DNA of 64,000 nt, from contig GG745338.1 in the NCBI GenBank assembly GCA_000151295.1, forward strand, positions 168,234 to 232,233, in the 5' to 3' direction. This DNA is from Allomyces macrogynus ATCC 38327. Lineage: Eukaryota > Blastocladiomycota > Blastocladiomycetes > Blastocladiales > Blastocladiaceae. Below, in pieces: positions 14,532-57,565 of this stretch (the first letter of the stretch is position 1; each line of letters opens with the position of its first letter). Made by a program: the position numbers and the translations under genes. The notes beneath the pieces were generated by a model. It was not told where the DNA came from, ran no database searches, and saw nothing but the letters and a program-made list of their open reading frames with translations.

Positions 14532-17500
14532 TCACGCGCCCTGCGGCCCCGGTCCCTCGGTGCCGGCCCCTTGCTGCTGTTGCTGCTGCTGCTGGTGCGG
14601 CGGCACCGGCCCTTGCCGCACCACCTGCCGCGGCCGCACGTTCGCGCGCACCTGCGGCCCCATCGACTGCATGTGAAACTGGTGGATTCCCGCGGGCCGC
14701 TGCGCACCTGGCTGCCCGTGTGCACTCATGTGCTCCTGTGCAGCTGCGGGTGCCGAGTACGCGTGGTGCTGGAATGCGGGCGGCGCCGGCATCATCGGCC
14801 CGGCGCCCATCGGCGGCCGCATCCCCATGGCCAGCTGCTGCTGGTACATGGCCGAGTTCATGGGCGGCGGGATCGGCATGCCGTAATACGGCGGTGGGGC
14901 GTACATGCCAGGGTGCGCGTGCGGCGGCGGCATCGGCCGCCCGAGCTGCGTCGGGAACGGGCCCGGGTAGGTCATGGACGGCATCCCAGGCGCGTGCGGA
15001 CCCACGGACATGCCCGGCGGGCCGGCCATCGGCGGCGCGACCATCGACCCGCTGTCTTGCGGCATTGGCGCCGACGATGGCACATGCGGCGGCGGCGGCG
15101 GGATCGATTCGGGGAAAGAGGGGATCGCGCGTGTCGATGACTCAGCCACGGCCATGGGTGGGGCCGATGCGGGCAGCGCTGGCTCGTCAGTCGGGTCCGC
15201 GGCGGGCATCTTCAGCGCCTGCTTGAGCGCCGCCGTCGCGTTAACCGGCGTCGGGGCTGCGGGCTCTTGCTTGTTTTGCTGCTTCCGGCCTTTCTTCTTG
15301 TCTGCATTGGGCGACGCGCCGGCGGTGCTCGATCCCGATGCCTCGCCGCCAGCGGGTTGCGGACCGGCAATGTTGAGCTTCTGCTTGAACAGCTTGGTCA
15401 GTTTGTCGGGGTTGGTTGCTGGCACTTTCTCGGCCGCATTACCGCCGCCACCCCGTGCCACACCGCGACCACGGCGGCCACGCGGGCTGCCAGTGTCGCG
15501 CGGCTGCTGTTGTTGCTGTTGCTGCTGCGGGACTTCGCTCTGTTGCTGTGGTCGTTGCTGTTGCTGCGGCGGCACTTGCCCTTGCTGCTGCTGTTGCGGC
15601 CGCTGCAGCACCTGTGGTTGCTGCAGGTACCTCGGCTGCTGCAAGCCGCCGCGCCCACCGGGTCCCCGCGACTGCGGTCCCGAAAACGTCTGCGGCGGCG
15701 CCGACGGCGCGCGCTGCTGCTGCTGCGCTTGCCCGTTGGGCCCCGCGGGCGTCGAGTGCGTGCGCGCCGGTGCGGGCGCCTGGCCGCCAGCGGCCCACGC
15801 GTTCTTGCTCGGCGCGGGTGCCGGCGAGTAGGTCTTGATCTGCGCCTTGGGCTTGACTTCGCTCGTCCAAACGGGACTCTGCGGGTAAGTCAAGTTTAGC
15901 AGCAGGCCGCGCTTCATGGCGAGACCGCGCGACTCGGTGCATCTGCAGTCGCAAAGAGAGGGAGTGGTGAGTCGAACGCTCCTCAGATCAATCACAAAGA
16001 AAACATCAAGCACGTACCGGCCGTTCAGCGTCGACCCGGCCATGAATGTCACATCAAACACGACCTCGACGTGCTCCTTCTCAATGCCGACAATGTACCC
16101 GAGCGCGCCGAGCGGCGCCTTGCCACGGTCGGCGACGCTGAGCACGCGATCGCCCAGACTAAACGTCTGCTTGCCGAGCACGAGTTCGGCGTGCTCCGAC
16201 TTGAGCACGCTGTTGGCCGGCACGCCCTTGACGACCACCGGGTCGGCGTAAAACGGCTTGGCCGTCGCAGCCGCCTCCTGCAATTTCTCCTCGAGCCGGC
16301 GCACCTGGTCTTTGACCATCGCCTGCGCGTCGAGGTGCACGCGCTCAAAGTCCTTGACGGGCGACGCACGAATCCAGTCGCGGATTTCCTGCAGCTTGTC
16401 CTTGGCGCAATCGCGCGGGTAGAAGTCGGTGTCGCGGTACCACGCCGACGAGGACCCGTCGCCGGGCTTGGTCTCAAGCCGCCGCACGAAATCCGGAAAC
16501 GCGGTCTTGAAGTCGCGAATCAGGTCGATCGCCTGGTTGCTGTACTCCCAGGTCGCGTTGACCTTTTGCGTGTACCCGAGAATCTTGAACCCCTTGGCGT
16601 CAAACTTCATTTGCAGGCCGAGGTTCCATTTGGTGTCGGACCCGGGGCACGTCGTCATGACGACGTGCAGCGACGACGTGAGCTTGGCGAGCGCCATGCC
16701 CGACATGTTGAGCAACCGCGCGGCCATGTAACTCGGTTTATACGCGTACTGGTCCTTGGTCTCGCGCAGCACGGCGTGCCCGAAATCTGGCATCGTGATG
16801 GTGCCGCGCATGATCTGCGCATCGAGCGTGCGCGTGCGGCCAAAACTGGCCGTGACCTGCCCAGGCCCGCCGTACATGGACTTGCCCAGGTAGAAAATGC
16901 GCGTGCCCACGGGGAACTCGACGTGCAGCGGCAACGCGGCGCGCTCCTCGAATCGCGCGTCGACGTACGCGACCGACTCGGACTCAACGACCAGCTGCCA
17001 CGGGTACCAGGCTAGCTCATCGGCGTACTCGCGGCGCGTACTGCCGTCAAGCGTGCGCACCATGGTCTTGATCGTGCGCACGGCCACCATGACCTGCACG
17101 TCCTCGAGCACCACGGCAAACCGTTTCGACACGTGCCGCTGAATGCGGTGCGCCGTATTGCGCCAGTCGCCAGTCTCGTGCGGCTCCATCAAGTTCGCGC
17201 GGTCGGCGCCCGTCTTGACGTCGTACATGACGCGGCCGTCGGCGACCTTCTCGACGCGTGCCTCAAACAGCATCGGCCAGTCGACATAGACTGACTTGCC
17301 GAGCACGCGCTGCGCCACGACTGCGGCGTCGGGCTGCTCCTTGTCGACGTGCAGCACGACACTGTCGTGCCGCGAATCCGACTCGAAGACGTGTACGCCG
17401 TGCACGCCAATCGTGCTGTGGTAAGGCAGCACCGAGAACGTCGGGAATCCGGCCATTTGCTTGAGCCCCTCGCACAGGCCGCGCTTGAACGCCGCCACAT

Positions 17501-19860
17501 GCGGCGGAATGAACGGCTCGTCCTGGCACTTGCACGCTGGCAAGGGCGGGAACACGCCCGGCAGCGAGCTCGGGTAGTCATGCGCCGTCTCCGAGAACGT
17601 GAAGAGCGTCGCGGGCCGGAACGAGTTGCGCTCGTTCTCCTCGCGCGTCAACTCGTGTGCTTTCGACTCGATCGCGGCCAGCAACCGGTCCTGGTCAATG
17701 AACGGGATCTTGACGACGGCCTCCCAGTCGTTCTTTTTCCCGTTCAGGTCCATTTCAAACTCGGTCGGGTAGAAGTCAATGATCGGCGAATTCGGCGAGA
17801 GCATCAGTTCGTGCAGCGGCGCCGGCACGTGCTGGCGACTGGCCGCGGGCAGCACGCCCATGAGCTGCTCGAACGGACGGAACGGTGTGCCGAGCTCAAA
17901 CTCGAGATCGAGGTCAGCTTCAGTGAGCTGCGCGAAATCGGAAATGTGCGGCGAGTAGTGGTACGGGTAGAACCAGCCCCACGACGCCACGCCGTCGTAG
18001 TAGTATCGCAGCACCCACTGCAGGCCGCGAATATACTCGCACAGCAGCGCCTTGAGCGCGTCCGGGTCGGCGTCCACGTCAAACTCGAGCTTCGTCTGGT
18101 AGTAGTTCTGTTTCCAGTCGTGCAGCATGGCCTTGTACGACGGCCGGTCGGCTTCGGGCACTGCGGGCTCGGGCTCGACGATCGGCTTGCGAATCATTTT
18201 CTCGAGCAGGTCTTTGCGCACGTTGTCGCCCTCGTCGTCGGACAAATCCTCGTCCTCGTTGCGCATCACGACCCACTGGCCGTCGCCCGTCACGTCGAGG
18301 TAAAGGTTGAGCTTGAAACATAGATTCTCGAGGAACGGCGTGTCGGTCGTGGTCACGGCCATCGACAGTTCCTTGGTGTCGAGGAAACTGAGCACGTCGT
18401 CGAGAATCAATCGCTGCTCCATAGTGATGCCGTCGCGCGGCTGCTGCTTCTTGGCCTTCTTACCGCCACCGTTGCCGCGGCCATTGCGTTGACCGCCGCG
18501 ACCGCCACCTCGCCTCCCACTGCGCCCTCTGCGCCCGCCACCACGATCGTCATCTTCGCCGTCGTCGTCGAGCTGGTTCCCGTCCTCGTCAATGTTAGCA
18601 AATGCCTGGAACGACTTAGCTTCGACCGACTCGAGTTCCTTGAGCATGGCGAGCAACGTGGGCACGTGAATCGTGCCGTCATTGTTGATGTACGAGTCGG
18701 ACGTGGCCATGACGCGCTTGTAGAGGTCGAACATGACGGCGAGCGCGCCCTCGTTGATGTGCAGGTTGGGCAAGTGCGGGAGGAAATCGTTGCCGACAAA
18801 CAGCGAGATGAGCACAAAGTCGTCGATCACGCGTTCTTGGTTGAACTCGATCTTCATCGTTTCGCGCAGCGCTTGGAACTCGAGCCCGAGGTACTCGCGG
18901 AACAGACTCAGGTGCATCAAGAAGAAATTCTGTGACTCGAGCGTCGCCGCGCCCGCGCGTTTCTTCTTGGGCCCAAACGAGACTTCTTCGCGCAGCAGCG
19001 AAAAGTGCGGCTCGTGCGTGACGAGCCCGAGCATAATCAAGTCGGCGTCGAGCCCGTACAGGCAGTGCCGCGTGTTCGGGTCAAAGTCGTCCTGCGCCTT
19101 AGCGTTGCGAATGTATTCCATGATCTTGTGCTCGCCCTCGCCGGGCGTTTCGTGGCCCGACAAGATCACCTTGACGTTGCGCCAATTCGCGTCCTCGGCC
19201 ATTTTACTGCGCACAAAGTACTGCAGGTGCTCGGACAACCGTTTCATGAACGGCGTGCCGGGCGTGATGCAGTTGGAGTCGAATGCCTCGGTCTTGTCGT
19301 CAATGTCCTCGCCGTTGCGCTGCGCCTGCGCAATGCGCCGCTGCGTGTCGAGCGCCGTGCGGAACCGCCGCGACCGCTGTTGGTTCATTTTCGCGCGCGG
19401 GGCAACGCCGTCGACGGCCATGAAGAACACCTTCTTGGGCTTGATCTTGTTGAAGAGGTGGTCAATGTAGTCGAAGATGGCCTGGAACATTTGCGCGTCA
19501 GTCAGGCGGAAGTTGATGTCGTCGTCGTTGGGGTGCGAGCAGTTGTGGATGATGCCGTTCATGTCGAGATAGAGGTTGTCTGGTGAGAGAGGACGAATCA
19601 TGGTCAATTTCCGCTGATACGCGGCAAGCTGGCCGGGAACGCGCAAGGAGCGCCGCGTACCAAACTCGGGAATGCGCTTCTCGGTGATCAGCTCGCTGCA
19701 CATTGGATAGCGCTCGCTATGTAGAGACCAAAACATCGTCAGGTCATGAACGGGCGCTCCTGCACCATCGACCCGGGGATCATCTGCTCAGACGCGATCA
19801 CCTAGGCAAGAACAACACCAAGCGGTACCTGATCCAGCGAAAGAACTTTGGGATCCCCAT
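14532..19860 (-). CDS. XRN1: 5'-3' exoribonuclease XRN1
   Basis: Four exons: 19829-19860, 19661-19716, 16018-19579 and 14532-15942 (1686 residues; sum divisible by three). The spliced start reads MGIPKFFRWISERYPMC then ITEKRIPEFDNLYLDMNG, the invariant XRN nuclease N-terminus. Conserved blocks follow: DGVAPRAKMNQQRSRRF, PGTPFM, SGHETPGEGEHKIMEYIR and YGLDADLIMLGL, which include the metal-binding acidic residues. An Arg/Gly-rich insert near 18440-18545 breaks the nuclease region. The length and the domains after the catalytic core fit cytoplasmic XRN1 rather than nuclear RAT1/XRN2. The C-terminal 450 residues are low complexity, with several poly-Gln runs (around 14574-14597 and 15500-15600) and Pro/Met-rich stretches. 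It degrades decapped mRNA. Confidence 0.95.
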
Positions 19861-20584: not shown

Positions 20585-21876
20585 ATGACAACGCCGCGAC
20601 TCCCCGCATTCGGCGCACCACCGCCCGGCGCACCGACCGTGCGCACACTGACGCTCGCCGGGTCGGTCACTGCCTCCCGCCGCCGCGCCCCGACCGCGAC
20701 CACCACGCTCCTCGGCGCGCGCGCCGCCGCGCAACCGTATGCGCGCCCACCCTTCCCGCCCGTGCGGCTCCCGTTTGATCTGGGCCTGGGGTCCCGGCAG
20801 TCCACGCTGACCGGCGCGCCCGGGAATCGGCGACTGTCTATGCCCGCGCCCGCCGTGAGCCTCCTGGCGAATCGCCGCATCACGCTGGGCGCACCGCCCG
20901 GCCCGGACCGCGTCCGAGTCCTGGCGGCGTTTGACGACATTGACGACGGGATCGAGCAGCCGCGACTGCACCAGACGGAACCGCTGCTCGCGCAAATGGC
21001 CGAGTTTGGACGCAATATCGTGCGTGCGACGCAGATTGCGCGCCGTCATGCGCTCCGGTTGCAGTCGGCGCAGATTGAGGCCGATGCGCGCGACAGAGGT
21101 GGGTGCTCTCTCTTTGTTGCTGATGGTCCTTGACGGGCCACGCGTGCGGGCCGTGTTCCCTTGCTGACGCGGAGGCAACGTGTTTAGCGAGAATCAAGGC
21201 ATGCGAGCAAAAACGACAAGACATTGCCATGTGGTTCCGCGCTGAGCAGGAAAAGCACGGGCGGCACAAGCAGCAGGTTGCCTCGCAGCAGGCCAAGATC
21301 GCGGCCCAGCGCGACGCCACGGAGCTGGCTGTGCACCGCAAGCACTTAGCCGACGATGCCAACAAGGCGCTCGAAGCGCAGATTGCCCAGGTCAAGCAGC
21401 AACTGGCCGAAAAGGCGCAAGAGCGCGCCAGGCTCATTGCTGCTGCCGACCGCGACATTGCGCTCTATGCCAAGCTGACGGGCCTGACCATTTCCGTGGC
21501 GAAACCCCGGCCGGGAACACCACCCTCGACGGGCGCCGACGCCCCGGCACCCGCGCACCCGATGGTGTTCACGTTTGCAATCCCGGGACTGCGCAACAAG
21601 GCCGTGGTCTCGCTGCTGTTTGGCGACGTGGCCGTTCAGGCGACGGGTGAACCGGACGGGCCCGGGGCGTACCGATGCGAGAGTGCGGCCGTGGCGCAGG
21701 CACTGGCCAAGGCCAGGATACGGATCGTGCAGTGCGTGCCGCTGGTCCCGCTCGACGATGCGCTGCTCGAACTTGCTGTGCAGCGCAACGTGTTCCAGTT
21801 TCTCAAGCGTGTGCGCCGCGAAATGGCCGAGTACGCGGCGCGGCAGCTGGCGGCGGGCGGCCGACGGGTGTTATGA
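20585..21876 (+). CDS. Spc25-like kinetochore protein (Ndc80 complex)
   Basis: Exon 1 is 20585-21098 and exon 2 is 21188-21876 (400 residues), with an 89-nt intron. The layout matches Spc25: a coiled coil of about 120 residues across the intron (heptad-rich, Lys/Gln/Ala), then the linker DIALYAKLTGLTIS, then a small globular domain of about 110 residues. That domain has MVFTFAIPG, a pair of beta strands (VVSLLFGDVAVQAT), CVPLVPLDDALLELAV and the ending VFQFLKRVRREM, which parallels the Spc25 end pattern of a Phe followed by a Lys/Arg-Arg helix. Unusual is a Pro/Ala-rich N-terminal extension of about 120-150 residues, making it much longer than the usual 220-250. Identity is inferred from domain order and pattern, not strong sequence identity. 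Another RWD-type kinetochore subunit is possible. Confidence 0.6.
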
Positions 21877-27167: not shown

Positions 27168-30100
27168 ATGCGTCCGCCGCCCTCGACACGCATTGCCGCC
27201 GGGCACGATGCGTCGACGAGCGGGTCCGCGCGCAGTTTATACACGATGCAGGGCGGCATCACCGTGCCGGTCGCGACGCTTGCGTCGCATCAACAAAAAG
27301 AGGGCGGCCCAGCAGCGGCCGCGATCCCGCCGTCGCATGTGCAGGGCCTGTACCACCCGTCCATGATCACGCTCGGTATGGAGCGGTCCGCGCAGATTGT
27401 GTTCCCCGCGTCCGGCAAAGTGTCGGTGATCCAGTCGGGTAGGTTAGTTGTCTTTCTCATGGCGTTGGATTGGTGCTTGGTCAGTACTGGAATTGAAACT
27501 CGGTTGTTCGGTTTTTGTGGGTGCCGTTTGAACAGAGCACGATCGGTCAACCATGGTGGTCGCCATGTCGCCTGACCCGGCTGTTCCAATTATCGCTGTC
27601 GGCGACACGCACGCAGGCCGCATCAGCATCATCCATGGACCGAGCGAGCTCGTGTGCATCACGCGCGAACTCGGCCAGCATTTCCCGGACTTCAAGTTGC
27701 GCGGCATGGTGCTCTCCTGCGCGCCCGCTGCCGTCACTGGGCCATCATCAAAGTGCGTGGAAGCCGAAATGTTGACCATCGCTTGGGCCTTTGACTGATT
27801 TGATTGGTGGCGATGCCGCGCACTCTAGGTTCGAATTGATCGTCTGGTCGCAGCACCTCGTGATTCGGTTCTACGATCTCGACTTACGCGCCATGTGTCG
27901 CGCCGTTGACACCAGAGACCATGACACATTCTCGCAGGTATGGATTTGGTGGCTGTGGTTGGCTGGTCGAGTTGTTGCTTTGGCCTGACGACCCTCATCG
28001 ACAACGTCTAGATTGAAGCGTCGATGGGGGCCGAGCTGCTCGTTTTCCCGGTCCGAGGCGCGCACCGGGTCGGGCAGTGCCACACGGCCGTTACGTCGGT
28101 GATCCCGATCCGGCCGCACGACGACCTGGCCGATATTGCGCCCGGCCACAGGCACTTTTCACACCTCTTGGTTGTTGGCGAGGGCTCAAACTGCATGTCG
28201 CTCTGGACCCGCGGCCCCAACACTTCGTCCGCGAACTGCGTCAACTGCGTCTCGTCGTCGTCGCTATACTCGCCGATCCGGCAAGCACACGCAGCACCCA
28301 ACGGCATCGGCCTTTACACGCTCGACGCCGCCGGCCATCTGGCGTATTGGGTGATCACGAACTCGTGCCGGATACGGCTGCTGCGCCAGTACGGCAAGCC
28401 TGTCGAGGACTTTGCGGTCCATGCGCTCGCTGCGGCCACGGCCGCGTCGACGGACCCGAACATTCGGGTTCCGTCGAGCCATTTGGTCATGGTCGCGCAG
28501 CGCCGCACGTCGACCAAGGGCGACAAGTTGGGCCGCCTCCGCGGCGAGGGCGAGAATGTTGGGTCACCGTGCATTCGACTGCTCGATTCGCGAACATTCG
28601 ACGAGGTGGCCCGGTTCGACCTGCCGGAAATGGCGCGGGTGTGGCTGCCGGCGACGATTGCACATGCCGTGGTCGCCAAAGCGCCGTCGGCTGTAAACGC
28701 GCGGTCTTTTGCGGGTGCTGTCGTCCTCCCCGTCGTCGGTTTGCTCACGGAAATGCACAACGGCGCACCGTGCCTGCAGATTCGCGAGATTATTGAGACG
28801 CAGCCGCGGCAACAGCTGAGAGCGCTCATGCGCAACGGCGACTGGACCGCAGCGCTGGCGTTTGCGACGCAGTTTGGCATGGACGTGCAAGACGTGCACG
28901 AGGCGCGCGTCTCGGCAATGCTCGACGCACCCATTACGGCCGACCAAATGCTCGCGGCCATTCAGCCCGTCGCCGACACGGTCATCAAGTGCAAAGTGTG
29001 TTTGCGGGCCAAGTGCGCGACGCTCGCAGACGTGCGCCGATTGCTCGAAGCGGCCAAGGAGTACAGTACCAATGCGCTCGGTGCGCTGCGCAACGAGGCC
29101 AAGTCACACGGGATCTCGGCCAAGTCATCTCGTTCCGATGACGAGACTGGGTCGGTGGCGGCGGTGGCCAAGTCGCAGGGCCCGTTGGACGACGACTCGG
29201 CGAAGCGTTTGCTGGCCCAGATTGCCGAACTTGAGCAGCTTCAGAACAACGTCAACGACTCGATGGTGCGGCTCGGGACCTGGTGCCTGTTCAACCGCCC
29301 GTACCAGATTGATTTGTGGCGCCGGTTCATGAACGAGGATCTGGTTGTCTCGGCGCAGGCGATTGCGGGATTTGGGTTTATTCGCGACCTCAAGTTGCTC
29401 TGGACACGACACGGCCCGGTGCGCGATGCGATCGAGACCATTGTCACTTCCATCCCGCTAGACGTGCCCTCAGCCAAGTTTATTCCGTGGCTCCAACACG
29501 ATGTGTTTCCTGCCACGAAACCCGACGCAACTGCGGCACTGTTCAAGTGGCTTCAGTCGCGCGCAATCGCCGTCGAGGAGCTGCCGTCGCGCGGCCCGCA
29601 GGAAGCGCTGCGGTTGATTGAGCTGATTTTGGCGGCCGCGACACCATCGACGCATTTGCAGACGCCTTTGGCCTGCTTCAAGTATGCCATGAGCGTGGGA
29701 TCGCCAGCCGTTCCGCCCGAAACGTTGCGGCTCGCGCAGTTGCTGCGTGATATCGTCGACCTGCATGAGACGCACGGATACTCGATTTCGCTCGCGGCCT
29801 ACCAGAACAAGTCGCCTGAGGAGATTGCCATGGCGCTGCTCGATCGTGCAGTGGTGCCGGAACTGCTCCCAATGGCCGTGAAAGAGCATTTTGACCCGTA
29901 CGTCGCACGGCATGACCTCGACCGCGACATGCTTCTGCGCGACTATTGCGTGCAGGTCCTCGATGAACGTGTCGCGGGCGCGTCGGCGCAGTGGGAATCG
30001 CGCGTCGTGACGCTGCTCGAGTGCCTGTCGAGCGCGCAGCGGCGGTGTACGGTCATTGCCAACTTGATGACCTGTGTCGGCGTCCCGTGGAGCGACCAAG

Positions 30101-33100
30101 TCAACACCCTGATCCGTGGCGCACTCGCACTCGATCCGCGCGCGTCTGGCACCGCTGCCGGCAGCGAAATGACTGCCGAGGACGCGCCGTCGCCCGAGCA
30201 GCTGAGCGAGATTCGCGGTCACTACCAGCGCATGCTGATCCGACGCATGGTGCAGGCCTACCACATTACGGGGTTCGACGTGTCCAACACGTGGCAGGCG
30301 CGACAGCTCGTCAAGTTTTTCGCGACACGGCTCGACCGCACGCCGCTCGGCGGCACAGGACGCGCCGAGAGTCCGCACTCGGACCGCGATCGTGTCCCGA
30401 CTCTCGATCCGCTCGCTGACGCGCTCCAGGTTGCGGAATCGTACACGTCTCTGTCGCGCTCGTTTGTGTTTGAAACGTTCTTGCTGCACCATGCCGAGAC
30501 CCGCGCGCCGCACGTTCTGCGTGCGTACTTGGACCTGCTCGGCCAGCATCCGTGCCGGCTTGAGATGGCAGTCGCGGCTCGCGCTCCGGCTGCGTACATG
30601 GTGTCGTTAGTCGATCGCGCGACCGGCGCGACGGGATCTGCGGATGCTCAGCCCCGAACGGCCTTGGCCCGCGCACCGAGCGCTCGTGCTACTCGGCTCG
30701 AGCTCATTGAGAACGCATTGGCCCTGTTTGGATTTGTCGAGCGGCATTTCGGCCGCGCCGGTGTCGATCTCCACGCAAAGACCCAGGCCGCACTCGTCAA
30801 GGCGCAGCGGCTCCAGATTGAACTCGATTTGGCCGCGCCGCTGGGCAAATTGAAGTCCGAGGAGGCGTGTCTCGCACTGTTCAAGGTTACGGTTGAGACG
30901 TGGCGTGCATCGGTCACCCATGGGGACGAGGACGGATCGACGATGCAACTTGCCATTGGCCAACTCGCCGACATTCTCGCGATTCCGACTCCGACGGCGC
31001 GTTTATACCTGATTCGACATGCGCTCCAGGAGCGCAACGTAGCCGAGGCCGTTTTGCTCGTGCAAACGTGCATCCAAGAGGAAGTTGCTCTCGACGTGCA
31101 CGTGGTCATGCAGGATTTCGCGTCGTTCATGGTGTCGAATCCACGATTCGTCACGTCCGACCTGGTCACCAGCCTGACCGCTCTCGCGCAATACTCTGTG
31201 CTGTATGTCGAGGAACGGCAACTGCCCGCGACTTTGGACCTGTATCGGCTCGTTGCGCTGCAGCAAATCGTCTTTGACTTGACCGAGCTCGGTGATTATG
31301 GGCAGCATTTGCGCGCGTCGGCGGCAAGGACGGCGGACGTCGAGACCTCAGCTGCGGCATCGAATGCGGGCCGACCTGGATCGCCTCACTTGCCCGTGGA
31401 GCTGTTCCCGCACCAGTACGACTCGGATTCGGGACTCGTGCTCGACCCGGTCGCCGCCATCCCGCCGTGTGCGCGACTGATCCAACGCGGGCTCGAGGCG
31501 CTAGCCGCAATCCACCCGCAGTCGCTCCTGACCAAGCTCGGCCATTCGCGCAAGAAGAACAAGGGGCGTCAAGTCGATCCCATGGCGACGCTGCAAGAGG
31601 CCGTGAATGACGTGTCGCGACTGCTCGCTCGAGCCAGGCACTTCCAGACTAGGCTGCATCTTGGGGCCACGTTTGCCGAAATGATGACGCGGCTTGTGCT
31701 TGACGGCACGCGCGAGATCGACGCCCTCATGCACCTACAACAGCAGCTGCGCGTGGTGGATGGGACGCGCGAAGTGTGCCAGACGCTCGCTGGCGCACGA
31801 AGTCTGGACATGGCGCTCATATTCGGCCATTTGCTCGAACTCGGATCCGTCGAGAGTATGCGGGTCGTGCAAGAGTGGCTCGGCGGTGTCTTGGGCAATT
31901 TCTCCAAGTCGCACGTCCTGTGCTCGATTGGCATTGCCTGCGGCACGTTTTGGCAACACCGCGCGGCCATCGCGTTTTTCCTCGACTACATTGCCATCAC
32001 GACGTGGACCGAGCAGCTCAGCCTGCTCGACATTCCGTTCCGGCAGGGCGACTTCAATGACGAGACGGACCGACACACCAAGCTGCTCGAGTACGTGCCG
32101 CCGCTCCTCGACAAGACGGGACTCGACTTGCTCGTCGCGCTCGAGTTTGCGCGGCAGTTCAAGATTGACGAGGATTTGGTCTTGATCATGTACATTCAGC
32201 AGCAGCTCAAATACGGCAGGTCGCGAAACGCCAGCAGCACGAACAGCGACAACGCGCTCGGGGCCGATTGCGGCTCGTCTGCGCCGACATCCGCCAACTA
32301 CGAGTACCAGAATGCGATCGCTGGAGTGCATGGCGAGGTGCTGCGCAAGAAGCTACTGGCCGGCGTCTACATGGCCGCGTTCAACCACTCCGACCCGCAC
32401 GATTACGACAAGATCCAGTTCATTTGCGGGCAGCTCGCTGACGTGGCCACGCACGAAGGGGTCGACATGTCACGCGACCAGATTCATTCGTTCATGTTGG
32501 CGCGAACGGTGCTCGAGGTGATTCGATCGTTCAAGAAACCCGCGGTCGGCGAGCTGGCCGCTGTCGTTGCCGAGGACGTGCGTGTCGCGCACGAGAACGG
32601 GTGGGACGTCGAGTGGGCGGCGGAGCGCGTGCAGCTCCACGCGCTGTGCCATTCCCCGTGGGCAACGATTCGCAGGTACCTGTGCCCGGCCACGGTCGAC
32701 CAGCTGCTTCCGATTGGCGCCGTGTTCAAACTCGATCCGGATACGATTTTTGGTCAACTTGTGACGCAAATTACGGCGCAGAAGGGATCGACTCTGCGGT
32801 TCGCCGACGTGCGGCCGTACCTGCGCCAAATGCGCGGCAGCATGGCGTTCAGCGTTGCGAAAATGGTTGGCGAAACCACGCGCGGCAAGGACAAGGTGCA
32901 GGCGCTGCGGTTTGCGCTGCAGTCACTCGAGACGAGTCCCTTGCCGTCGCCGGACGTGACGGCTGAAGCGGCGGCGGCACGGCAATCCGTGACTGACCGA
33001 GTCGGCGGGCCCATGGTCAACCAAGAGCACGATATGTCGGACGCAAAACGGCTACTCATGGTCAAGGCGTTGCTGAACCGCGCCGAGCTCGAATGCCTGC

Positions 33101-35094
33101 TCGAGGACCAGCACCTCGACGAGTACCTGCCGCTCGTCACGCAACAAGACGTGCTCATCGAGTTATTGTATCGAAACTATCGCGCTATTCAGCAACGACC
33201 CAGCGTCACGATGACCGTGCACGAGCTGACCGCGCAAATTGCCGCCAAGTGCGCGATCAACATTCAAATCTTCCGCCGCCAGCTCTACAAGGTACACAAC
33301 TTCTCGGGTGTTTCATTTGGCAAGGCCAAAGTCACGATGCTGACGACTTGGATTCCCAAAGAAATTCCTGAACGCCGAGGAGGTCCTGGTTGAAGGTCAA
33401 TTGCCGTCGGCCACGTTTCATGTATGTCTGTCTGTCCCAAGCGTTGCTCGCTTGACCAGTCGGCGTCATGGCATCTGTGCTGACGGTTTGATTCTGCAAC
33501 GCTCTAGAAATCCGGGTGGGCCCATCACGACGTTATTCTGCGCTTGCTCGATACCGCGCCGCGCCAGGAAATGATCAAGGAGCTCCTCGAAATCGCCTAC
33601 GTATGCACGTCTGCCCGATCCCAACTGGTCAGCGGAGGTAACACAACTCACGAGTGAGTCTCTCGATTTCATGGTCTTCAGGATCGCAACTCGGCTCGAA
33701 AGTCACACGTTCGGATTCGCGCCTTGAGCATCGTGCTCAAGTTTGCCGAGCCCGAAGAGCTCAAGCAGGTGCCCATTACCCGCGTCAAGTTGCGCCGGTC
33801 ACTCCGCGGCTTCTTGCATTTCCGGGACTGCCAATACCTGGACATTCCGCACACGTCCAAGGATCTCGGCAACTGCAACAAGGCGCTGTTGCAGTCCCTG
33901 TGGTACAGCTCTCGGAGCCACGCCAAGTACCCGCTGGTGCGTCTTTCCAATCTCTCAGGCTCCCGCGGCTTGCGAGGTTATTGTTGAGTCTCACGACCAC
34001 GACCACGACCACAACCACAACCACAACGCACCCTGTCCAGGTTCTCCACCTGATTTGCAACTTGTCGCTCGACTACAGCATCTGCGATGACACGCTCATG
34101 AAGCAGTGTCTGACGGACCTGCTCCGGCACCAGCAGCACTCGTACCTGCTCGCCAATCTCGGCATGTTGTCGAAACTATACGGCAACCCGTCGTGGATGC
34201 TGATCGTTTGGAACCAGCTGCTCCACGCCGCGGTCGCGCACCCGACCCCGGCCAGCACCGACGCGATAGCGTGGTTCGATTCCATTCACGAAGCTCTCGT
34301 CTCCTGCCCGGTCGCCTCCAGTCTCTTCCCGATCGCCGACAGCGACGACAATGAAGGATCGGTTTCGACGGAGCCCAATCCGAGGACGAACGGCGGCGCA
34401 CATCCACCATTGGCCGAGGCGCTTCTCGACATGGCGTGGTCGCGCGTGTCGGTCGCTGCTGGTCTGGTCTTGCTCGCGGCCATGCCGATGAGCGAAGCGC
34501 GCGCCGTCGCGGCCATGGATCGAGCACGGCTTGAACCGGCCGACGTGGCTCGCGCTGTCGTCGTGTTACCGGAACGGGACCGCGTCGAGGACGTGCAGCG
34601 CCACGTATTTGCGTACGCACTTGCCAAGGACGCGGCGGCCGAGGTGGCCGAGGCGGCGCCGAGTCTCGTTCCGGCCTTCTTTGAGCACTGTCTCGCGCGC
34701 AATGTCTTGTACGACGTGGTCCAGGAAGCAGTCGTGTCGAATCGGTACGTTAGGTCTCGGCCAACCCGATTCCCTTCCCGATTTTCCTCGCCTGACTGGC
34801 TGGGCGGCGCGGATTGAACGTAGTTTGACATTTGCCGAGACGTTTGCGCAAATCTTCACGAAGCACCAAGGGTGGGAAGTGCCGGAAGGGCAGTCGCACT
34901 TGCAAGTCGCGCTGGCGCAGTTTGCCGCTGCTGCAGCTGCTCCTGCTGACACTGACCAAGGTGACGGTGTGCCAAATGCCGGGGCAAACGGCGTTGACGG
35001 CAATTGGCCCAGTTCTGAGGGCCAGGGCGGCGCAATACTCGCTCCACGGGCTGATCAAGGCGACCCAATGGGTGATAGCAGAGCGCTGCCGTAG
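27168..35094 (+). CDS. Rod/KNTC1 homologue, RZZ-complex kinetochore scaffold
   Basis: Nine exons: 27168-27438, 27536-27752, 27829-27937, 28012-33291, 33362-33421, 33508-33600, 33682-33936, 34041-34744 and 34824-35094. They sum to exactly 2419 codons plus stop, close to human KNTC1 (about 2200). The first 380 residues form beta-propeller-like repeats (PIIAVGDTHAGRISIIHG, ELIVWSQHLVIRFYDLDLR). The rest is an alpha-solenoid. Segments aligning collinearly with KNTC1 include LAFATQFGMDVQDVHEAR, LLWTRHGPVRDAIET, FIPWLQHDVFPATKPDA, LRDIVDLHETHGYS, VVPELLPMAVKEHF and, near the end, VRIRALSIVLKFAEPEELK and LSLDYSICDDTLMKQCL. Rod with Zwilch and ZW10 builds the outer corona that recruits Spindly, dynein and Mad1-Mad2. 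Yeasts lack Rod, so an intact copy here is notable. Intron 7 contains a hexamer repeat. Confidence 0.87.
33993..34028. repeat. Hexanucleotide microsatellite in a Rod intron
   Basis: Six 6-bp units: three ACGACC, two ACAACC and one ACAACG. They lie inside the intron 33937-34040. The unit change from ACGACC to ACAACC is itself a CpG-to-CpA transition. Confidence 0.9.
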
Positions 35095-38804: not shown

Positions 38805-41800
38805 TTACTCCTCCTCCTGTTGCTGTTGCTGTTCAACAAGCGCGGCCTCTTCCTCGGTCAAGACGTGCAGCGGCGACGCGGCGAGTGCGCGCACCAGTGA
38901 CCGGTTGAGCGCGGCCGCGAGCACGGGTGGCACTGCGTTGCCGACCTGGAAGTACATGAGCTTGATTGCGTTGCCATAACAGTGGAACGTAAAGTTATCC
39001 GGGAAACCCTGGCTGCGCGCGGCTTCACGCACCGTGATGATGCGGTCCTGCTCCGGGTGGAGAATGGTCTACGAGGGCGGAGAAGCGCGTTAGCCAAACG
39101 GATCTGAAATACACAACAAGAACGAAGAGAAGATGAGATAAGAACGTACCCCCGTCTTTCCCATCGGGTTCATTTCCGTGGTCGCAGTCTTGAACGTGCC
39201 CTCCCACTGCAGACGCCCGTAGAGCCCCTTCCACCCGGAATGCCGCGATGCGGCCGAGTCCTCGTGCGAGAGCGCCCACGGCTTGAGTTCGTCGGGCAGG
39301 CTCTGGTGGTCGCACCCGGGCGGGTCTCGCGGGATCCAGCAAATGCGTTCGACGATATCCGACGACGTGAACTGGCGCGTCATTTGGTTCTTGACCATCG
39401 ACAGGTAGAGGTCCGACTCGTCGGACTCCTCGTCATTTTCCTCGTCGTTGTTGTCGGCGTCTCTGCCGTGTGCGTCAGCGCCGTTGGCGCGCCGCTGCTG
39501 CGCCTCGGTCTCGTGGTCGAGCCGCATCCGGCCGAACCGCGTGGCGACGCGGCGCATGAGCCGCTGGTAGTGTGACCTGGGCCGCGTCAAGTAGGGTGCC
39601 GGCCGCGTGTACCCGACCTCGGTCAGGAACCGGAGCGTCGGCTCGTACCCCTTGACGAGCTTGACAGCCGAATTGTGCCGCATCGCCTCGACCTTGTTGC
39701 GCGGCAGTTTCATAGCCACGTTCGGGTTCTCAAAGTCGAATGCCGGCAAATCGGAAATCGCGTCCTTGACGGTCGTGTTCGGGTACAGCGCGCGCGTGAC
39801 CTTGCAGTAGGACGTGACGTGGTGCACGAGCCGTGCTTTCGCCGCGGCGCGTGCCTCGGCGTCGAGACATACGGCGAGGTTGCACGTCTCGGTCTTGAAA
39901 ATGTGCGTGGGCTCGGGCCAGTCGGGCAACTTAATGTGCGGCAGCGTCGCAAACACGAGCACGCGACGCCGCGACTGCGGTGTGCCGTAGTTGCCGGCCT
40001 GCGCAACGTGCCAGGTCACTTGGTACCCGAGCTCGACGAGCACGCGCAGAATAAACGAGAGCGTGCCCGTCTTGTGCCCGCCCTCGACGCGGTGCTTGGT
40101 CGCCTGCTGCCCGCCAAACTTGAACGTCAAGAGGCCGACGACGTTTTCGAGCAAAAACACCTTGGGCCGGTAGAGCTCGACGTACGAGAGCGCCGTTGCA
40201 ATCAATGCGTTTTTCGGGTCGTCGGACTTCCGGTTGTTGTTGAGGCCCGAAAAACCTTGACAAGGCGGTCCGCAGTAGATGAAGTCGACGTTGCGTGCGT
40301 CGGGCGCGACCTTGGTCGACTTGGTGATCTCGGCGGGCGTGACGGGCGGCGGCGCGTCGGTGCCAAACGTCGCAATGCGCTGCTTGATCGCGTCCTCGAG
40401 CAGCGCGTTGCAGTCGACATTGTAGACGGTCGAGCCCGGGAAATTGCTGTGGAACGTGAGCGATGCGTGCTCGTCCCACTCGATCGCCCACTTGGTGTCG
40501 GCGCAAGCGACCAGGTCAGAGTCGAACCCGACCGTCAGACCGCCACAGCCGCTGAACAGGTCAATGGCCTTGAGCCGCGCGAGCCCCCTGGGCTTGGCCG
40601 TCGGGTCAGCCGCCGCAACGACGTCCTCGAGCGAGTCGGCGGGCGTCTCGGTAAAGTTGAGCAGCGCGGCCTGCTCGTTGAGCTTGAGAATATTGCCGAC
40701 CGACCGGTTCTCAAACACGTCAGTAGTCCACGGCTCAAGCTTGGCCGGATCGACCGAGTCGCGCAGCTTGGTCGGCGACGTCGACATGTGCTCGAGGAAC
40801 TTGGTCGGGTTGTGCGATGGGTGCAGGCCATGAAGCACGAGGTTGTGCTCGAACTGGAAGTACTTGTTGGGTGATTCAAGCCCGCGCGGCACGACGACGA
40901 GATGGCCGCGCAGCTTGTCGACCGGAATGGTCTCGTAAATGTTGGTCATGAACACGCGCCGCGGGTCGCTGTCGGCGTCCGGGTTGTCGTCGTGGTAGAG
41001 CGAGTTCCATCGGCCGAGAAGCCGCACCTTGACGGACGCGCGCGCGGCGCGCGACGAGGACGAGCGCTTGGGCGGGGCCGGCGTTGTTGCGCGCCCGTTG
41101 CGCCCACGCGGCACGGCGGCAGCGGCACGGCCACGCGCGGGGACTGACTTGACGTCGTTCTCTTCATCATCGTCGTCGTTCGAGACGTCCATGGCGTCGA
41201 CGCCGTTGCTCGAGGGCTGGTTGCCCGATGAAATCTTGACAATCTGCGCAAACAGGTAGAGGCCAATGCTGGCCTTGTCGTGGTCGTAGTAGATAAAGTC
41301 ATTTTCAAAATACTTGACGCCGCCAACCTCGATGTTGCGAATGGTCGTGGTGTTGAGCGGCGGGAACGTGGCGACGCCGGCGCGCGTGAGCAGCGGGTGG
41401 CGGTGCGTGCGCTCAAGTTCGACGACGTCGGGCAGGGCCACGGGCATGCGCCCGCGCTGGCACCCGGGGCACACGGTCAGGTCGAGCTTGACAAATCGGT
41501 CGCGCAGGAACATGGCGCGCACGGGCTGCGGGTCGTGCTGCAGGTCGGCGAGCGGCACGGTTCGACACTCGGCGATCGGGTACATGAACTCGTGCTCGGC
41601 CATGGCGCCCATCTGCGTCTGGTACCCGTAGAGCATGATCACGACGTGCGCGCGGTTGCCGTCGACGCTGTGCACCATGAACCGGCGCGCGTTTGCCGCA
41701 GACCCGCGCGTGCGCACCGTGTCGCCTGCGACAATCGGTGCGTCGGACGGCTTGACGATGGCCTCGGGCATGCGCGAGTAGGTGAAGACGTCCTTGCTGC

Positions 41801-43186
41801 CGACGACTTGCCGGCCGACCTGGTAGACACCAAACTCGTCGGCAATTTCTGCGACGAGCGGCGTGAACGTGGCGAGCGCGTCCTTTTTCAGATGCGGCGT
41901 CCTCTTTTGCACTTGCTGCACGCGTGGAGCACGGTCATGGCCCGAGGCGCGGCTCGTGCGACCATTTCGGCTGCGCGACCTGCCCGTCGCCTCCTTGAAC
42001 CAACGGTCGAGAACCGGGTGCCGGTACGTGATCTTGCCGGCTCCCATCCATTCCACGGTCGTTTGGCGAATCTGGTCCTTGAGATGATCGAGCGCCCATG
42101 CCTCAATGGCGTAGACCTTGCCCCCGAGGCCAAATTGGTGGTTGATGAGCCGGTCCCAAATCTGCGCATCCTTCATGGACTTGTCGGGATCGTCGAGCAA
42201 CACGTCGAGAACAAATTCAACCGCCAGATTGATCATTGCCGATTCCCAAAACTGGTCTGCGTAGGACCGGTGCGGGTCCGTCAGCCTGTACCATGCACAA
42301 TGCGTCTCGACCCAGAAATCCCTACATGAGAGGAGATGTTTTCGTCAGCTTTCCCTTCTCCACCGGTAGAGCCCCCCAAAAACTCGACGAGGAGTGTCAA
42401 GTACATTCGGTTGTCCTTGTCCATGTCGGAAAACGAGCGCATGATGGGTAACGTCGTCAGGTAGACGGGCACGGGCTCGTCATCGCCGTCGTCGTCATCG
42501 TCTCGGAAATTCTCGTCGCCATACAACGGAAGCACACGCCCACTGACTTGTACTGCTAGTTCCTCGAGTCCAGTGTGCATGTAGGGTGCGCGCGCGTTCA
42601 AGTCGTCGATTTTGTGAATAACGAAATCGGTCAACTGGCGCAGCACCTTGCCGGTGCCCTCCTCGCGCGCGATAATGTCGCCGTTGACGACTTCCTCACG
42701 CAGGACAAAGTCATCGGTCTCGTCGACGGCATTTTCGAGCGAGGAACCAGGCGCAGCGTCGTCGTCGTTTTCATCGCTGTCGCCCAGCGACGCGGCCGTT
42801 GCGGTGCGCGAGTTGGCGCCGTCGGCATCGACGTCGTTGTTGTCGTCGTCGGCAAATGATACGGGCGTCGCGGACCGCGAGCTGGCAGCGTCGTTGTCGG
42901 CAAATGATGCGGGCGTCGTGGACCGCGAGCTAGCAGCGTCGTCGTCGCCAGCCTCGGAATCTAGGGCGGGTGTCGGCAGCCGGCCGTCGTCGGGTTCCGG
43001 GTCCCAAACGTCAACGTCGCGAGGCGAGGAGGAGGATGGCGGGTCGCTCGAGTCGGGCGTCATGGGCTTGGCGCGCTTGGGCGCTCGGGCCGTGGCCGAC
43101 GACGAAATGGCCGGCAAGGGAGGGCTCCGGCTGCGCGCGGCGCGCCGCTTGGTGCCTGGGACGGGTCGTGGTCGAGCGCTCGACAT
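38805..43186 (-). CDS. DNMT1: DNMT1-type DNA (cytosine-5) methyltransferase
   Basis: Three exons: 42405-43186, 39150-42321 and 38805-39068 (1405 residues; sum divisible by three). An acidic, Ser-rich N-terminus is followed by an RFTS (replication-foci) domain across intron 1, with [16 protein letters not shown] as landmark. Next is a region matching two BAH domains (about residues 430-830). The catalytic domain starts near residue 847. Motifs: [31 protein letters not shown] with the catalytic Cys, [24 protein letters not shown], and the C-terminal block [13 protein letters not shown] then QVGNAVPP. No CXXC finger was identified. This layout is a maintenance methyltransferase acting on hemimethylated CpG at replication forks. 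The C-terminus is Glu/Gln-rich. It is divergent from oligoribonuclease. Confidence 0.93.
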
Positions 43187-55827: not shown

Positions 55828-56967
55828 TCACTGCCGCCCTATCCCAAACTGCACGCGCGGCCCGACCCCGACCACGGGCGACCGGCTCGCCGGCGACAAC
55901 GGCTGCTGGCCTGGCGTACCCCCCGCGAGCATCGACAGGAACGCCGGCTGAGTGGCGCCAAACAGGAGCGAGGCCGGCGCTTGCGGTGCCGGTGCGGGAG
56001 TCGGTAGCGGGAGTGGGGCCGCGGCGATCGCGCACGGCGCACTGACGGCGACGGGCGGCGGTGCGATCCCAAAGTACCATCCGAGCCGCGCGGCAAAGTC
56101 GCGGACGACGTCGGTGAGTTGGCCGCCGGTCATGGCGTTGGCGTCGGTCAGGCTAAGCAGAATAAGGGGTAAGTAAGTGATGTGATCGAGTGAACGGTTG
56201 AAATCAACTAAGAGCAACGCGTACCACTTGCCCCAAGCCTCGACGACCCCCGGCGCCATATACCGCGCCTGCTCGTGCGCCCACTGCGCGACATGGTGAA
56301 TCGCCGCGTGCCAGGCCTCGCGCACGCTCGAGACCAGGTTCGCCTTGGTGCGCCGGTGACTAGCATTCTCCCAGTCGGGCAGCCGCACGACCATGTTAAT
56401 CGCGAGCGCCAAGTACTCGAAGAGCGTCGCGATCCGGTCGAGCTTTGACTCGGCGGGGTCGAGCACCATGGCCTGCGCGTAAAAATACTCGAGGAAGTCG
56501 ACGACCGCGTCCTTGATCCTCTCGAGCACGGGCGCGACGCGCGCGTAGGCGTAGTCGTTGGCAATCGGGCCGGTGCGCGAGTACGGGAACGCGTCGCGCA
56601 GGTCGCGCTCGAGTCGAGTCAGGTGGGCCGCGACGGCGGCGATGGTCGGTTTCGGGATAGCCGCGTGCAGTGCGACGGCCTGGTCCGGGTTGGCCGATTG
56701 CGCGAGGTCGAGCAGGATCAAGATGAGCTGGTCCTTGTCGAGAATGGACAGGTACTTGGCCAGCATACGGTGCGTCGCGGCCGACGACGCGGTGTTGGAG
56801 CCGGAGCCGGAGTTTGGTGGGTGCGTCGGCGTCGGTGGGGCCGTGTGCTGGCGCACGCGCTTGGCGGTCGGGAGCGATGGCGTCGACAGCGCCGCGCCGG
56901 TCGGAGCGTCGGTTTCGTCGTCGGCGCTGTAGGCGCGTTTGCGGCTGTACATTTGGGCCATGGCCAT
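55828..56967 (-). CDS. STS1: Cut8/Sts1 nuclear proteasome tethering factor
   Basis: Exon 1 is 56225-56967 and exon 2 is 55828-56152 (355 residues). The 72-nt intron 56153-56224 is in frame but low in GC with GTACGC and TTAG ends. The N-terminus MAMAQMYSRKRAYSADDE is basic and low complexity, suitable for nuclear import. The conserved domain has MLAKYLSILDKDQLILILL, LHAAIPKPTIAAVAAHLTRL, DAFPYSRTG, DYAYARVAPVLERIKDAV and LFEYLALAINMVVRLPDW. These match the Cut8/Sts1 six-helix bundle, including the FPY and YAYxRV signatures. In fission yeast Cut8 anchors the 26S proteasome in the nucleus and is needed for securin and cyclin destruction at anaphase. The C-terminus is Pro/Ala-rich. Confidence 0.88.
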   Translation of the reverse strand: MAMAQMYSRKRAYSADDETDAPTGAALSTPSLPTAKRVRQHTAPPTPTHPPNSGSGSNTASSAATHRMLAKYLSILDKDQLILILLDLAQSANPDQAVALHAAIPKPTIAAVAAHLTRLERDLRDAFPYSRTGPIANDYAYARVAPVLERIKDAVVDFLEYFYAQAMVLDPAESKLDRIATLFEYLALAINMVVRLPDWENASHRRTKANLVSSVREAWHAAIHHVAQWAHEQARYMAPGVVEAWGKWYALLLVDFNRSLDHITYLPLILLSLTDANAMTGGQLTDVVRDFAARLGWYFGIAPPPVAVSAPCAIAAAPLPLPTPAPAPQAPASLLFGATQPAFLSMLAGGTPGQQPLSPASRSPVVGVGPRVQFGIGRQ

Positions 56968-57565
56968 GGTTGGACTGGGGTTGGAGGTTTCGGGGAGCGC
57001 GGAGGGTCGGATGGCGGCGAGAGAGAGAAGGGACGGGACGAGGATGTGAAGCGCAGGAGGTGGTTGCCGCAGAGAGACGAGGGGAGAGGGTGGAGAGAAG
57101 AGATGGGCGTCGGTCGGCAAGCTCGGCGGAGCGAATCCGTGCGCAGAAAGTGGCGGCAGGGAGGGACGGGCGGCGCTCGCGGCGCCGAGGGCGAGGAGGG
57201 CAATGGGGGGCGATGGAGCGTCTGGGATGCGGGGAGGCCGATGGCGAGCACTGGAGCAGAATGCAGCAAGTTGGGCCGGATGGCGACTGGGGGCCGGAGA
57301 GGAGGAGACGGCGCCCGCGCCGTCGTCGCCACGGAGAGCAACCAAACGTCAGCGGCGGTGGTTGCATCGTCATCTTGTCGCGCGGCACGCGGCGTGGATC
57401 TGACTTGGATTATCTTCCCAAGAACGCGTCTTCGCTCTTTCCACTGTCCACCGCTCCCAACACGCCATGGCATTCCCATGAACAAACGACCCACAACAAC
57501 ACCAAACCAATAGCAGCAACGACAACATTCGGCTGGAGCCAGCCCAACGACACGCACATGTTTCC
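56968..57565. promoter_or_regulatory. Upstream region of Cut8 gene, no separate gene seen
   Basis: An open frame continues upstream of the Cut8 start to about 57345 but is Pro/Ser/Ala-rich with no conserved content. I read it as leader and promoter sequence. The last part is the 3' flank of the G3BP-like gene. Confidence 0.4.

What the first reader, a model, noticed from the sequence alone, without database searches (positions are those of the whole stretch)
27168..35094. Intact Rod/KNTC1 gene in a fungal-type genome
A 2419-residue product from nine exons aligns block by block with KNTC1 along its length, from the propeller to the C-terminal helical repeats. Rod is missing from budding and fission yeast, where the checkpoint works without the RZZ corona. 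An intact copy implies this lineage still builds an animal-like outer corona, or uses Rod otherwise. It would help date the loss of RZZ in fungi.
Basis: partly seen in the sequence, partly recalled or inferred. Interest (0 to 1): 0.82.

Follow-up and report, generated by a model that had tools for sequence, protein, structure and literature searches.

The report
Rod kinetochore gene in Allomyces
The window holds an intact gene for Rod, a protein that in animals works in the outer layer of the chromosome-attachment site; it is real, but it is a deposited gene of the zoosporic fungus Allomyces, and Rod in fungi has already been reported.

Summary
Nine exons at 27168-35094 (+) give a 2419-residue protein, identical to deposited AMAG_06235 of Allomyces macrogynus ATCC 38327, a blastocladiomycete fungus. 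Five KNTC1/Rod Pfam families match over their cut-offs, from KNTC1_N to Rod_C. KNTC1 (7qpg_R) is the only solved sequence at E<=1 for the large exon (2.7e-21). A second copy on C53 keeps all eight introns but has four frame-shifting indels and two in-frame stops in this assembly, so the window copy is the intact one. Partners: ZW10 is clear; Zwilch is probable but weak; Spindly was not found by motif patterns, which is inconclusive. The dating argument is not new: Wu 2023, citing van Hooff 2017, places the full RZZ-Spindly set in fungi and animals. A corona in Allomyces is not shown. Verdict: true and well read, but ordinary. A possible side lead is a second, divergent ZW10_C-bearing gene pair.

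The parts
27168..27438 (+). exon 1: start codon, N-terminal tail and start of the KNTC1_N match
   Evidence: copy 2 has ATG at the aligned place
27536..27752 (+). exon 2: KNTC1_N region (residues 78-337 of the protein)
27829..27937 (+). exon 3: KNTC1_N region
28012..33291 (+). exon 4, 5280 nt: rest of KNTC1_N, the three KNTC1 ARM-repeat domains (best stretches 605-722, 841-968, 1454-1670) and the start of Rod_C (from residue 1888)
33362..33421 (+). exon 5, Rod_C region
   Evidence: 98.3% identical in copy 2
33508..33600 (+). exon 6, Rod_C region
33682..33936 (+). exon 7, Rod_C region
34041..34744 (+). exon 8: end of the Rod_C match (to residue 2190) and C-terminal region
34824..35094 (+). exon 9: C-terminal tail and stop codon

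Best explanation
The gene encodes the Allomyces macrogynus orthologue of Rod (KNTC1), the large scaffold of the RZZ complex. Shown: an intact nine-exon reading frame with the KNTC1 domain order, in a genome that also has ZW10 and a probable Zwilch. Inferred from the animal proteins: the propeller and helical repeats bind Zwilch and ZW10, and the complex sits on unattached outer kinetochores to hold checkpoint proteins and dynein. Whether it polymerises into a corona in this fungus is open. It is most likely an inheritance from the opisthokont ancestor, kept here and lost in yeasts.
For: Five KNTC1/Rod Pfam families over cut-off in order. KNTC1 (7qpg_R) is the only PDB sequence at E<=1 for exon 4, E 2.7e-21. 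Relatives in A. javanicus (2393 aa, five families precomputed) and A. arbusculus (2394 aa, four of the five over cut-off, KNTC1_N 21.2 under 27.1) are near full length. Between the two A. macrogynus copies dN/dS is 0.248 over 2403 codons. ZW10_C 53.4 bits, cut-off 25.8, and ZW10 chain 7qpg_W at E 3.1e-9. Zwilch family at 25.2 bits, cut-off 25, in the A. arbusculus relative; only the two Zwilch sequences at E<=10 with the three-row profile.
Against: No functional data in any call. The Zwilch match is weak: 18.3 bits in this genome's C75 frame, below the cut-off of 25, 24.1 in A. javanicus, none in AMAG_02076, E 0.009 in the profile search. Zw10_N gave only a below-cut-off match in what looks like a coiled coil. 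Spindly's motif was not found. Rod_C was not found by the exon-wise genome search. Structure predictions were too poor to use (mean pLDDT 32.7 and 42.3).
Confidence: 0.85

Rival explanations
1. The gene is Rod by descent but no longer works at kinetochores; it serves another role, for example in vesicle tethering with ZW10 or at the flagellar apparatus.
For: Spindly was not found by motif patterns. Sec39, the tethering partner, was also not found by profile, so Rod could in principle stand in for it. A review quoted in PMC3785458 (passages) saw some correlation of RZZ with open or closed mitosis and with flagella.
Against: A probable Zwilch, for which I recall no tethering role, is kept beside Rod. 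The Sec39 profile rang in no control genome, so its absence is not shown. The Spindly patterns were narrow.
Confidence: 0.1
2. It is a different WD40-solenoid family (NAG/Sec39, RAB3GAP2, clathrin-like) that resembles Rod.
For: Such families share the propeller-plus-solenoid plan (recalled; no call).
Against: hmmscan at E<=10 lists only KNTC1/Rod families and one Utp13 match at E 0.3 (the program drops most matches above about 0.1).
Confidence: 0.01
3. The window gene is a decaying duplicate and the working Rod is the other copy.
For: A second copy exists on C53.
Against: It is the C53 copy that has four frame-shifting indels and two in-frame stops; the window copy is open throughout. Assembly errors on C53 are possible.
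Confidence: 0.03

Closest known systems
KNTC1/Rod (solved chain 7qpg_R, human by recall; Pfam PF24506, PF24520, PF24516, PF24515, PF10493)
   Same: Five families in order over cut-off; length 2419 against 2464 for the solved chain.
   Different: Strongly diverged: a single-sequence comparison aligns only one stretch well, exon-4 residues 461-708. No function tested.
AMAG_06235 of Allomyces macrogynus ATCC 38327 (deposited as hypothetical protein)
   Same: Identical letter for letter over 2419 aa; the KNTC1/Rod Pfam domains are precomputed for it.
   Different: Nothing but the label: the NCBI name shown does not call it Rod.
AMAG_19605 (1697 aa; UniRef name begins 'RZZ complex subunit KN')
   Same: Second A. 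macrogynus copy, 88% identical to the window protein in the alignment.

Membership tests
KNTC1/Rod | Rod_C (PF10493) C-terminal region | tested here: met
   45.6 bits, cut-off 24, spliced protein; not seen by the exon-wise genome search
KNTC1/Rod | N-terminal region (PF24506 KNTC1_N) | tested here: met
   32.1 bits, cut-off 27.1, residues 78-337; the propeller fold itself was not confirmed by structure
KNTC1/Rod | three KNTC1 ARM-repeat domains in order | tested here: met
   80.2, 40.5 and 57.6 bits, each over cut-off
KNTC1/Rod | better match than NAG/Sec39 or RAB3GAP2 | tested here: met
   neither is listed at E<=10
RZZ complex | ZW10 in the same genome | tested here: met
   ZW10_C 50.5 and 53.4 bits over the cut-off of 25.8 at C75; ZW10 chain 7qpg_W E 3.1e-9
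RZZ complex | Zwilch in the same genome | tested here: inconclusive
   18.1-18.3 bits here, below the cut-off of 25; 25.2 in A. arbusculus; PDB profile search lists only the two Zwilch sequences, E 0.009 and 0.12
RZZ-Spindly | Spindly in the same genome | tested here: inconclusive
   four exact motif patterns, five places in all, none in a coiled-coil frame by eye; no Spindly profile was searched
RZZ complex | assembly at unattached kinetochores | not testable with these tools
   needs cells

The most novel reading that the evidence does not exclude
Allomyces keeps a full Rod-Zwilch-ZW10 set and has two long-separated ZW10-type genes, so that one serves the kinetochore and the other the ER tether, a division of labour unlike animals, where one ZW10 does both (recalled).
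Probability: 0.12. Interest if true: 0.45.

Novelty: already known. Interest (0 to 1): 0.2.

Why it matters
It confirms that a zoosporic fungus carries an intact Rod gene, so an ancestral-type RZZ could be studied outside animals. It fits a loss of RZZ within fungi on the way to yeasts, but the presence of RZZ-Spindly in fungi was already in print.

Tried and rejected
Structure prediction: P0005 (Zwilch relative, three rows) gave mean pLDDT 32.7, and exon 4 residues 1-1196 as a single sequence gave 42.3. Both are unusable, so no fold search was run.

Wider taxon search: two protein searches with Rod returned the same four Allomyces proteins and nothing else (exon-4 residues 240-1790, E<=0.001, 7995 candidates scored out of more; residues 765-912, E<=1, 527 candidates). 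The tool needs shared exact words, so this says nothing about other fungi.

Rod_C by genome search found nothing. The match is split over exons 4-8, which may be why, and its controls rang nowhere; the spliced protein does match.

Zw10_N hit L002: below cut-off (17.7/26.3 bits, E 0.212) in a frame that looks like a coiled coil; dropped as chance.

Spindly: patterns for GNSLFxEV (0 places), NSLFxEV (1 place, reading NSFFAEV), FxEVED-R (0) and GNSLFxE (4 places, with 1 for the reversed control pattern). None lies in a coiled-coil frame, judged by eye. The motif is recalled from memory. This is no proof of absence.

Sec39 profile: nothing here and nothing in the controls, hence no conclusion.

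Literature: kinetochore+Zwilch+Rod+fungi+comparative genomics gave 3 papers, Allomyces+kinetochore 5, none on this gene by title, Spindly+Zwilch+fungi+orthologs 4, KNTC1+chytrid 0, three of Rod/Zwilch/Spindly/Batrachochytrium 107, of which 15 were listed, ZW10+Dsl1+fungi+paralog 6. Seen beyond listings: passages of PMC5579357, PMC10630089, PMC3785458 and PMC8476143 and section 12 of PMC10630089. The main texts of PMC5579357 and PMC10630089 do not name Allomyces; their figures and supplements were not seen, so I cannot say from here whether A. macrogynus is among their species. A search for its polyploidy (5 papers; passages of PMC8476143) gave nothing I use.

Full report
Observation. I rebuilt it from splice sites: exons 27168-27438, 27536-27752, 27829-27937, 28012-33291, 33362-33421, 33508-33600, 33682-33936, 34041-34744 and 34824-35094. 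They sum to 7260 nt, with 8 of 8 GT...AG introns of 70-104 nt and a single terminal stop, giving 2419 aa. A protein search returned the same protein, letter for letter, as AMAG_06235 of Allomyces macrogynus ATCC 38327. The species is a blastocladiomycete, hence a true fungus. The genome held as G000 has 53,996,887 bases in 75 contigs, and the window is C65:168234-232233.

Identity. hmmscan of the spliced protein lists five KNTC1/Rod families, each over its curated cut-off and in order along the protein: KNTC1_N (residues 78-337, 32.1 bits), ARM_KNTC1_1st (605-722, 80.2), ARM_KNTC1_2nd (841-968, 40.5), ARM_KNTC1_3rd (1454-1670, 57.6) and Rod_C (1888-2190, 45.6). The only other family listed at E<=10 is Utp13 at E 0.3. 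Against solved structures, exon 4 matches one distinct sequence at E<=1: Kinetochore-associated protein 1, chain 7qpg_R, E 2.7e-21; one stretch carries nearly all of the score.

Relatives. A. javanicus (2393 aa) and A. arbusculus (2394 aa) carry near full-length relatives, and A. macrogynus has a second protein, AMAG_19605 (1697 aa). Alignment identities to the window protein are 90, 87 and 88% in that order. A. arbusculus has four of the five families over cut-off (KNTC1_N 21.2, cut-off 27.1), and AMAG_19605 has four, without KNTC1_N. Two searches, the second limited to residues 765-912, found these four proteins and no others. The search needs shared short words, so no conclusion about other fungi follows.

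Second copy. Matches to the whole protein, residues 1-2418, are present again at C53:809330-817223. All 8 introns are kept with GT...AG ends. Exons are 84.5-98.3% identical and introns 65-85% over aligned columns. In this assembly exon 4 of that copy holds four frame-shifting indels (lengths 1, 1, 11 and 4), and there are two in-frame stops, at codons 602 and 2092 of the window register. Over 2403 comparable codons dS is 0.249, dN 0.062 and dN/dS 0.248 (codons with gaps and the two stops left out). I infer that both lineages were under constraint for most of their separation, so that the C53 copy decayed recently or was misassembled. Either way the window holds the intact copy. That the two gene sets come from a hybrid or polyploid origin of the strain is recalled, not tested.

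Partners: ZW10. PF20665 (Zw10_middle) matches at C73 with 24.1 bits, cut-off 23.6, and PF20666 (ZW10_C) at C75 with 50.5 bits, cut-off 25.8. The two open frames are alike (84%) and look like a pair of copies; the C75 frame matches the ZW10 chain 7qpg_W at E 3.1e-9. Against this: in the hmmscan of the open frames Zw10_middle falls under its cut-off (22.6 at C73, 14.9 at C75), and one search reported no ZW10_C match at C73.

Partners: Zwilch. One place on C75, 18.1 bits, E 0.0132, below the cut-off of 25. Its frame alone lists two Zwilch sequences first in the PDB comparison (E 0.04 and 0.21), then two unrelated chains at E 1.9 and 2.2. Its relatives score 25.2 (A. arbusculus, over), 24.1 (A. 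javanicus, just under) and nothing (AMAG_02076, whose model lacks that stretch). A profile of the three public relatives finds only the two Zwilch sequences at E<=10, at 0.009 and 0.12. I read this as a probable Zwilch, not a proven one.

Other partners. Spindly: four exact motif patterns gave five places, none in a coiled-coil frame by eye, which is inconclusive. Sec39 gave nothing, but its controls also gave nothing.

Mechanism. By descent and domain order the protein should scaffold Zwilch and ZW10 and act at unattached kinetochores. This is inference from the animal complex. No call tests localisation, polymerisation or checkpoint function. Two structure predictions failed to give usable confidence.

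What is known. van Hooff et al. 2017 (PMC5579357; passages) surveyed 90 species. They found that the profiles of Rod, Zwilch and Spindly are alike, with ZW10 following the ER-tether partners NAG and RINT1 instead. Wu et al. 2023 (PMC10630089; passages, and section 12) used 194 species. [quoted passage not shown] A review quoted in PMC3785458 (passages) had noted some correlation of RZZ with open or closed mitosis and with flagella. A fungus with flagellate zoospores (recalled) keeping Rod fits these reports. Neither survey's main text names Allomyces; their figures and supplements were not seen. I judge the finding true and ordinary.

Side lead. ZW10_C also matches over cut-off at C56 (33.4 bits) and C53 (31.7 bits) (30.0 and 29.0). 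These two are alike (81%) but only distantly like the first pair (23% over 102 residues, E 0.002 in a single comparison; profile comparison probability 23%, E 0.0009). They find no solved structure at E<=10 alone (the C56 frame) or as a profile of both. Two ZW10-type genes could split the kinetochore and tether roles. The second could equally be a diverged Dsl1-type protein or another tether subunit.

Noticed in passing
L006 (G000:C56:252682-253035) and L007 (G000:C53:244287-244640): A second, divergent pair of frames with a ZW10_C domain over the cut-off, separate from the clear ZW10 pair L004/L005.
   Followed up: partly
window 21124-21873 (+): An open frame with a weak Spc25 match (20.5 bits, cut-off 22.3), about 5 kb upstream of Rod; if real, two kinetochore genes lie close together.
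   Followed up: partly
   Followed up: yes
window 39093-42344 (-): Large frame (1084 aa) with a C-5 cytosine DNA methylase domain (122.7 bits).
   Followed up: no
window 14535-19787 (-): Xrn1-type 5'-3' exoribonuclease in one 1751-aa open frame.
   Followed up: no
window 55831-57348 (-): Cut8 nuclear proteasome tether domain (113.8 bits).
   Followed up: no
P0006 (AMAG_02076) against L003:3326-5785 (-): The deposited model of one A. macrogynus Zwilch candidate lacks about 60 residues that hold most of the Zwilch-family match in its relatives, which probably explains its missing Pfam label. Its contig length (2138473) differs from that of C75, so it seems to be a second copy, although the genome search showed one place.
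   Followed up: partly
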